Positions 45,897 through 47,458 of a stretch of DNA of 64,000 nucleotides are shown here, piece by piece (position 1 is the stretch's first letter; the number at the start of each line of letters is the position of its first letter). The DNA is from Earliella scabrosa. Taxonomy: Eukaryota; Basidiomycota; Agaricomycetes; Polyporales; Polyporaceae. The notes below the pieces were generated by a model. The model was not told the origin of the DNA, ran no database searches, and saw only the letters and a list, made by a program, of their open reading frames with translations. The translations under genes were made by a program, and so were the position numbers. The stretch is from NCBI GenBank assembly GCA_022605405.1, contig JABYQQ010000035.1, positions 186,001-250,000 of the forward strand. Direction: 5' to 3'.

Positions 45897-46120
45897 GGGC
45901 GGGCGGGAAGATGCTCGCGGCCCCGGTGGGTGTGGTGGGTGTGGTCGACGAAACTGCCACCTGCGGAGTTGGCTCTATACTGTGGGAGAGGTGCCGTCGT
46001 CCGGCGTCCGAGGTCGATGTGAGAAGAGATGGGGAAGGGGAAGCAATTGGTGAGACGTGGTGGCGACCGTCGACGGCAATTCCGACGACGGCTTTTGTCA
46101 ATTTTGCAGTCTGTGCTGGA

Positions 46121-47137
46121 TCAGAGCGGGATGACATGGCGGTGGGAGAAGGGGTAGATGTCGCTCAGGTCCTGTTTCTTCTGGATCGCTCCCAGGGTCC
46201 TGGGCTGGGAGGGCGACACGGCCGCCGGGTTGTGGGAGGCGGCGCCCGCCGTGAGCATGCGTCTCACCTGGTGCGCCTTAAGCTCTCCGTGTCTCCCTCG
46301 AGGTGTGGCCGTTCCACGGTTTTCGACTCCTGAGTCGTCTGTGGGCGTGATGTCCGAGCTGCCTCCCTCGTCCATGACTTCCTCCACCGCCGACATGGTC
46401 ACACCCTGCTCCTCCCCTTCGCCTCTCTCGACGCAGAACCTGCCTCCCAACTCCGAGGATGGCCGCGCTGGTTGCAACAGCGAGTGTTCGTCCTTGACCT
46501 CGACGAGACTGTCAGCTTCGACCCCTGCTTCGCTCGCCGGGGTGTCGGGGGAGGATGAGGAGGATGACATCGTTCGGTCGAGGTCGTCGGGGTCGCAGAT
46601 GTGGATGATCGAAGCGGTGCTTTCCCAGACTCTTTGCCAGAACCACGGCGCGAGCTCTTGCTCGAGCGAGTCGACCAGTTTGGACGTCCTGCCTAGGTGC
46701 AGTGGGGATATGGAGATTGGCCACGGGGATAGGACGCGCGTAACGATGTCTCTGGGCCCCGTCCTTGCCGCGAAGGCGAGCGGGTCGGCCCAGCCAAGGC
46801 CTGTGGGCGTGCACAACAAGTGCTTGCGATCGTAGGGGGTTTCGATCTCGAAGACTGCCCAGCCTCGACTAACCCCTTTGACCTGCAGAATCGTGGCGAC
46901 GAAGTCGTCCTCCTCTGACAACGCGCTAGGGTTGAGGCGCATTTCGCAACCTGACCTGATGGTTGCTGTTGGCCGTCTGAAGACGAGCCACAGCTCGTGC
47001 TCGCCCTCTGCTCCCGCGTGGTGGACTGGCACCTGTGCGAGGGTGTTTGCGGCGTCGGTGCGCTGGGCGAATGGCGCTACGGTGGAGACGATGGTCAGCC
47101 GCATGGCGGGGAGGTTGGATGAGGAGAGGGGGCTCAA
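46121..47137 (-). CDS. Accessory open frame of the retrotransposon, 338 residues, unknown
   Basis: Lies between the inner repeat pair and the closing repeat, on the same strand as the element's other genes. An ATG at 47137 and a second at 47102 (MRLTIVSTVAPFAQ) are possible starts. The N-terminal 180 residues look folded (HELWLVFRRPTATIRSGCEM, VATILQVKGVSRGWAVFEIE, WFWQRVWESTASIIHICDPD); the rest is acidic and Ser/Pro-rich and ends HRHVIPL. No reverse transcriptase, protease, hydrolase or zinc motif recognised. It could be an element-encoded accessory protein, a captured host gene, or chance coding in a GC-rich spacer. That it stays open within a recent insertion is weak support for function. 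Confidence 0.55.
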   Translation of the reverse strand: MSPLSSSNLPAMRLTIVSTVAPFAQRTDAANTLAQVPVHHAGAEGEHELWLVFRRPTATIRSGCEMRLNPSALSEEDDFVATILQVKGVSRGWAVFEIETPYDRKHLLCTPTGLGWADPLAFAARTGPRDIVTRVLSPWPISISPLHLGRTSKLVDSLEQELAPWFWQRVWESTASIIHICDPDDLDRTMSSSSSSPDTPASEAGVEADSLVEVKDEHSLLQPARPSSELGGRFCVERGEGEEQGVTMSAVEEVMDEGGSSDITPTDDSGVENRGTATPRGRHGELKAHQVRRMLTAGAASHNPAAVSPSQPRTLGAIQKKQDLSDIYPFSHRHVIPL

Positions 47138-47458
47138 AACCTCTTGTGCGATAAGAGGTGAGCTTGATCGGCTCTCCGCTGCGAATTTTGAGATAAAGAC
47201 GCCTTGTACGTCTTCTAGCTGGATTCTTGGAGTTTATGGCTATTGGAGCCACAAAATGAAGACGACTAGGCCCTAAAGTTGAACCGAGTCGTTAGTTTAA
47301 AGGCAATCATACTGCACAAAAGGCTCAGCGAAGACACGCGGTGATGCATCCCTGCCACGACTGCGACGGTCGCTCAACAATATGAGCGACAGGCTGAGGG
47401 CGGCAAGCTGTACTTCGTAGACTTTGTCTGAGATTCCTAGGGATTGGGAGGGTGGGTC

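What the first reader, a model, noticed from the sequence alone, without database searches (positions are those of the whole stretch)
45897..47458. Unknown 338-codon frame carried between the inner and outer split repeats of a recent Ngaro/DIRS-like element
The element has the A1-ORFs-B1-A2-X-B2 layout. X is 1.56 kb and contains one long frame on the coding strand with a folded-looking N-terminal half and an acidic tail. It matches none of the standard element proteins. Because both repeat pairs are identical, X should have moved with the element. It may be an accessory protein (silencing suppressor, nuclear import, integration factor) or captured host DNA.
Basis: partly seen in the sequence, partly recalled or inferred. 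Interest (0 to 1): 0.75.

Follow-up and report, generated by a model that had tools for sequence, protein, structure and literature searches.

The report
Extra gene in a mushroom retrotransposon
A jumping element in a wood-decay mushroom genome carries an extra, naturally selected gene of unknown function in a spot where another element of the same broad type in this genome has only a short spacer.

Summary
On the minus strand lies an Ngaro-type retrotransposon, A1-gag-RT/RH-YR-B1-A2-X-B2, with identical repeat pairs (A 158/158, B 216/216). X is no passenger: the genome (Earliella scabrosa by a database name) holds two more recent insertions of this family, both with a homologous, stop-free X frame (330 aa) in the same place. 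X proteins share 34-57% identity; gag, RT and YR 66-88%. X is under purifying selection (dN/dS 0.42, bootstrap 0.31-0.57, C19/C8), weaker than gag/RT/YR (0.07-0.12). Constraint sits in a ~145-residue N-terminal domain (0.21-0.33); the acidic tail is freer (0.47-0.78). A distant Ngaro in the same genome, also with identical repeats, has only 80 bp between A2 and B2. Two protein searches found no X relative outside this genome; no domain matched; the fold is uncertain. Best reading: an accessory gene in its own A2-X-B2 unit, probably host-facing (function inferred). Coding sequence in this position has precedent in nematode-form PAT and Kangaroo, where it is YR. New variant of a known kind.

The parts
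52754..52911 (-). A1, left terminal repeat of the element (coding strand is minus)
   Evidence: 158/158 identical to A2
51750..52706 (-). gag-like ORF, 318 aa
   Evidence: ORF; position; homologues in the C19 and C8 copies; no Pfam match
49105..51621 (-). RT/RNase H open frame, 838 aa
   Evidence: Open frame; 58% identity to a protein named Reverse transcriptase/ribonuclease H in Mycena sanguinolenta; no Pfam hit
47904..48860 (-). tyrosine recombinase (YR) domain, end of a longer overlapping frame
   Evidence: PF00589 E 7e-4, below the curated cut-off
47617..47832 (-). B1, inner right repeat
   Evidence: 216/216 identical to B2
47459..47616 (-). A2, inner left repeat; abuts B1 and so gives the B1A2 junction
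   Evidence: 158/158 identical to A1
45897..47458 (-). X segment between A2 and B2 (1562 bp; 1614 in C8, 1622 in C19)
47332..47414 (-). conserved block in the leader of X, 84-87% identical to the other copies; a 1-nt indel speaks against coding; possible hairpin
   Evidence: hairpin statistically weak
46121..47104 (-). X gene, 327 aa: N-terminal conserved domain (about residues 21-165), acidic variable tail
   Evidence: homologous stop-free frames in C8 (L021:1129-2121) and C19 (L022:1175-2167), dN/dS 0.42 for C19/C8
45681..45896 (-). B2, right terminal repeat
   Evidence: 216/216 identical to B1

Best explanation
X is a genuine fourth gene of this Ngaro family, held between the inner A repeat and the outer B repeat. 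The element is therefore two tandem A...B units: A1-gag-RT-YR-B1 and A2-X-B2. Shown: layout, identical repeats, presence of X in the three copies found, stop-free homologous frames, purifying selection, a conserved leader block after A2. Inferred: X has been inherited with the element since before the three copies' lineages split; A2 acts as promoter and B2 as terminator for a separate X transcript; because the B1A2 junction equals the junction expected in a circular DNA form, X is copied with the rest in each round. Inferred, less sure: X is a host-facing accessory protein (counter-silencing or chromatin/nuclear factor), because its dN is about four times that of gag/RT/YR yet it stays constrained, and another Ngaro in the genome does without it.
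For: Three of three copies found carry X in the same place. All three are recent insertions: window A 158/158, B 216/216; C8 A 158/158, B 222/222; C19 A 156/156, B 224/225. X frames have no stop in 3 of 3, although the C8 YR frame holds a stop, C8 gag is split by an insert and the C19 RT/RH frame ends at an insert. dN/dS of X for C19/C8 0.42 (bootstrap 0.31-0.57) against gag 0.12, RT 0.10, YR 0.07. Over the full alignment the sense frame is the only one of six without stops and has the lowest ratio in all three pairs. A public annotation has the C19 X as a 330-aa gene identical to my reading. The distant Ngaro on C9 has a bare 80-bp A2-B2 spacer and identical repeats. Junctions fit YR integration: the host triplet next to A1 reads AGT, AGT, AGA against AGA at the B1A2 junction. 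In nematode-form PAT and Kangaroo the internal repeats lie between MT and YR, so coding sequence in this segment is compatible with mobility (my inference).
Against: No X relative was detected outside this genome (7998 and 264 candidates scored), although RT relatives at about 50-63% are plentiful; X relatives may be too diverged, unannotated or absent. No transcript data were available, so a separate A2-X-B2 transcript is untested. dS of window against C8/C19 is near saturation (1.2-1.9), so those ratios are rough. The mirrored antisense frame comes close to the sense frame for C8/C19 (0.45 with 3 stop codons against 0.42 with none), and antisense ATG frames of 225, 227 and 201 aa exist in the three copies, as GC-rich coding DNA tends to give. 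The charge of the N-terminal 170 residues is not conserved (pI 6.3 in the window, 10.8 and 10.1 in C8 and C19). The host-facing role rests on evolutionary rate alone.
Confidence: 0.62

Rival explanations
1. X is a replication or integration cofactor of the element (a nucleic-acid-binding, particle or cDNA/circle-handling protein) rather than a host-facing factor.
For: The N-terminal 170 residues are basic in two of three copies (pI 10.8, 10.1); a weak model shows a beta-rich barrel plus helix; X sits beside the B1A2 junction, the expected site of circle integration.
Against: The window copy's domain is not basic (pI 6.3); a distant Ngaro in the same genome with identical repeats lacks X; X evolves much faster than gag/RT/YR.
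Confidence: 0.3
2. The X segment is kept mainly for a cis-acting signal (the conserved leader block after A2, or spacing between A2 and B2), and the protein is secondary.
For: The best 82-column stretch (47415-47334) has 66 of 82 columns identical in all three copies, the highest in X (mean 0.41 over all such stretches; 0 of 1000 column shuffles reach it).
Against: The block is only about 80 bp; the ORF outside it is stop-free in all copies with dN/dS below 1. Folding of the block is hardly better than shuffles (z -0.6 to -0.9) and the covariation is reached by 57 of 500 shuffles.
Confidence: 0.06
3. X is captured host DNA or a passenger gene.
For: Not a standard element protein.
Against: Present and diverged along with the element in the 3 copies found; no host paralogue when the genome was searched with the window X (E up to 1) and the C8 X (E up to 10). 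An old capture from a host gene since lost or diverged beyond detection is not excluded.
Confidence: 0.02

Closest known systems
Ngaro retrotransposons (DIRS order), including basidiomycete Ngaro
   Same: RT/RNase H and YR, no methyltransferase hit, split direct repeats A1-ORFs-B1-A2-B2 with identical pairs
   Different: An extra 1.56-1.62 kb gene-bearing segment between A2 and B2; the C9 Ngaro in this genome has 80 bp there
Vertebrate Ngaro with an SGNH-hydrolase ORF (e.g. Xenopus DIRS-53_XT)
   Same: A fourth ORF of unproven function after YR in an Ngaro element (PMC9210276, passages read)
   Different: X has no hydrolase match; the passages say that all Xenopus ORFs overlap, so that ORF seems to lie before B1, not between A2 and B2 (inference)
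Nematode-form PAT1 and Kangaroo elements
   Same: Internal repeats lie between MT and YR (PMC4157794, section 7 read), so a coding region follows them, before B2 (inference)
   Different: There the protein is YR itself and the element has a methyltransferase; here YR lies before B1 and the A2-B2 gene is an extra protein
SIRE/VIPER of trypanosomatids
   Same: A2-spacer-B2 as a recognisable unit (PMC6681497, passages read)
   Different: Spacer about 30 bp (inferred from the description of SIRE), no gene
Additional ORFs of bdelloid LTR retrotransposons
   Same: Retroelements that carry extra ORFs (PMC5408684, title and start of the abstract in a search listing only)
   Different: Different order of elements; no sequence link tested

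Membership tests
Ngaro-like YR retrotransposon | Split direct repeats A1-ORFs-B1-A2-B2, pairs near identical | tested here: met
   158/158 and 216/216
Ngaro-like YR retrotransposon | Reverse transcriptase and RNase H | tested here: met
   A relative named Reverse transcriptase/ribonuclease H at 58% over 96%; Pfam itself gave no hit, so this rests on the relative's name
Ngaro-like YR retrotransposon | Tyrosine recombinase instead of DDE integrase | tested here: met
   PF00589 E 7e-4, 19.8 bits against a cut-off of 27.1; HxxR and Tyr seen by eye, motif recalled
Ngaro-like YR retrotransposon | No methyltransferase domain | tested here: met
   No Pfam MT match in the gag, RT, YR or X frames scanned, a weak negative because Pfam also missed the RT
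Ngaro-like YR retrotransposon | Internal repeats downstream of YR | tested here: met
   YR ends 47904, B1A2 47832-47459 on the minus strand
PAT/Kangaroo | Methyltransferase domain; internal repeats between MT and YR (nematode-form PAT, Kangaroo) | tested here: not met
   No MT match; YR lies before B1
DIRS1-like | Inverted terminal repeats and internal complementary region | tested here: not met
   The terminal repeats are direct, split pairs
Ngaro SGNH-hydrolase ORF family | SGNH hydrolase domain | tested here: not met
   No Pfam hydrolase match in X from the 3 copies
PH-like histone-binding domains (Rtt106, Pob3/SSRP1) | PH-like fold with significant structural match | tested here: inconclusive

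The most novel reading that the evidence does not exclude
X is a transposon-made chromatin protein: a PH-like barrel with an acidic tail, of the kind seen in fungal histone chaperones such as Rtt106 and Pob3 (the acidic tails of these are recalled, not looked up), expressed from the element's second A-B unit to keep new insertions open or to steer integration.
Probability: 0.06. Interest if true: 0.82.

Novelty: new variant of a known kind. Interest (0 to 1): 0.5.

Why it matters
Ngaro elements are described as gag, RT/RH and YR with the repeats in A-pol-B-A-B or A1-[ORFs]-B1A2B2 order (passages of PMC3783388 and PMC8547959). A selected extra gene housed between A2 and B2 shows that the inner B1A2 junction can split the element into two coding units, and gives a way to see which part of the RNA/circle cycle constrains this spacer. 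A fast-evolving but constrained accessory gene is also a natural place to look for how these elements meet fungal silencing.

Full report
What is there. On the minus strand of the window an Ngaro-type element runs from A1 (52911-52754) through a gag-like ORF (52706-51750), an RT/RNase H frame (51621-49105) and a tyrosine recombinase (ending at 47904) to B1 (47832-47617), A2 (47616-47459), X (47458-45897) and B2 (45896-45681). A1/A2 match 158/158 and B1/B2 216/216, so the insertion is recent. RT identity rests on relatives such as a Mycena sanguinolenta protein named reverse transcriptase/ribonuclease H (58%); Pfam found no RT, and YR only below its cut-off (E 7e-4).

X travels with the element. 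Searches of the 51.7 Mb genome with the A2-B1 DNA, X, RT, YR and gag found two further copies of this family, on contigs C8 and C19. Each has X in the same place: 1614 bp with a 330-aa frame in C8, 1622 bp with a 330-aa frame in C19. Both are recent too: C8 A 158/158 and B 222/222; C19 A 156/156 and B 224/225. So 3 of 3 copies found carry X with no stop in its frame, although the C8 YR frame holds a stop, C8 gag is split by an insert of several kb and the C19 RT/RH frame ends at an insert of about 0.9 kb. No X-less copy of this family was found; the tool calls its counts lower bounds. The C19 X is annotated in public data as a 330-aa hypothetical protein of Earliella scabrosa, letter for letter the same, on a contig of the same length as C19; this gives the host name.

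X is a selected protein. In pairwise NG86 counts C19 against C8 gives dN/dS 0.42 (bootstrap 0.31-0.57) for X, against 0.12 for gag, 0.10 for RT and 0.07 for YR. Window against C8 and C19 gives 0.49 (299 codons) and 0.30 (198 codons) over the local alignments, and 0.54 and 0.34 over the full alignment, with dS of 1.2-1.9, so these are rough. Over the full alignment the sense frame is the only one of six without stops and has the lowest ratio in all three pairs, though the mirrored antisense frame comes close for C8/C19 (0.45, with 3 stop codons). Residues 21-165 have 0.21, 0.33 and 0.24 (C8/C19, window/C8, window/C19); residues 166-327 have 0.67, 0.78 and 0.47. X protein identity is 34-57% where gag, RT and YR have 66-88%. 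A longest ATG frame of the observed length or more arises in 5, 4 and 3 of 1000 Markov sequences for window, C8 and C19.

A non-coding feature. Just after A2 (47414-47332) lies a block 84-87% identical to the other copies; 66 of 82 columns are identical in all three, more than in any other such stretch of X and not reached in 1000 column shuffles. A 1-nt indel speaks against coding. It can fold as a hairpin with two pairs changed on both sides, but the statistics are weak (57 of 500 shuffles; z -0.6 to -0.9).

Comparator. A distant Ngaro on C9 has A1 = A2 (344 bp) and B1 = B2 (145 bp), all 100%, and only 80 bp between A2 and B2. So X is not a general need of Ngaro mobility. In SIRE/VIPER the corresponding spacer is about 30 bp (inferred from passages of PMC6681497). 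In nematode-form PAT and in Kangaroo the internal repeats lie between MT and YR (PMC4157794, section 7), so a coding region in this position has precedent.

Integration. On the coding strand the B1A2 junction reads ...GCATAGA|TT[AG]TG...; the host bases next to A1 are AGT (window), AGT (C19) and AGA (C8). This fits a YR crossover within a short AG-containing core shared by circle and target (inference). The flank beside B2 (45400-45680) is single-copy in the genome; the other flank was not searched.

Limits. Relatives of X were sought in protein databases with a word-based method; none outside this genome was found, while RT relatives elsewhere are abundant at up to 63%. Because the window and C8/C19 differ by 28-29% in RT and by more than 60% in X, an X in elements at 63% RT identity could easily be missed. 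No fungal genomic DNA beyond this genome was available, and no expression data.

Noticed in passing
L023:1789-6426 (G000:C5): An RT+YR retroelement flanked by perfect 128-bp inverted repeats, with no split direct repeats found. The right repeat begins just after the GHSFRIGG motif, so the YR end with the expected tyrosine seems missing; a rearranged Ngaro is likelier than a DIRS element (the abstract of PMC3783388 supposes that DIRS were lost in Dicarya).
   Followed up: partly
L035:3657-8637 (G000:C9): A distant Ngaro with all repeats 100% identical and an 80-bp A2-B2 spacer: a recent insertion without X.
   Followed up: yes
L021 from about 7600 to L037 about 7030 (G000:C8): Several-kb insertion splitting gag of the C8 copy, containing a helicase-like ORF (called helicase-like by eye).
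   Followed up: no
L022:4302-5162 (G000:C19): Insert of about 0.9 kb at the end of RT/RH in the C19 copy.
   Followed up: no
window 59006-59756: 36-nt inverted repeat arms, 89% complementary, 679 nt apart; might be a small inverted-repeat element.
   Followed up: no
window 42111-42254: Tandem 24-nt repeat in front of a minus-strand ORF (40160-41866) with a weak C2H2 zinc-finger match below the cut-off.
   Followed up: no
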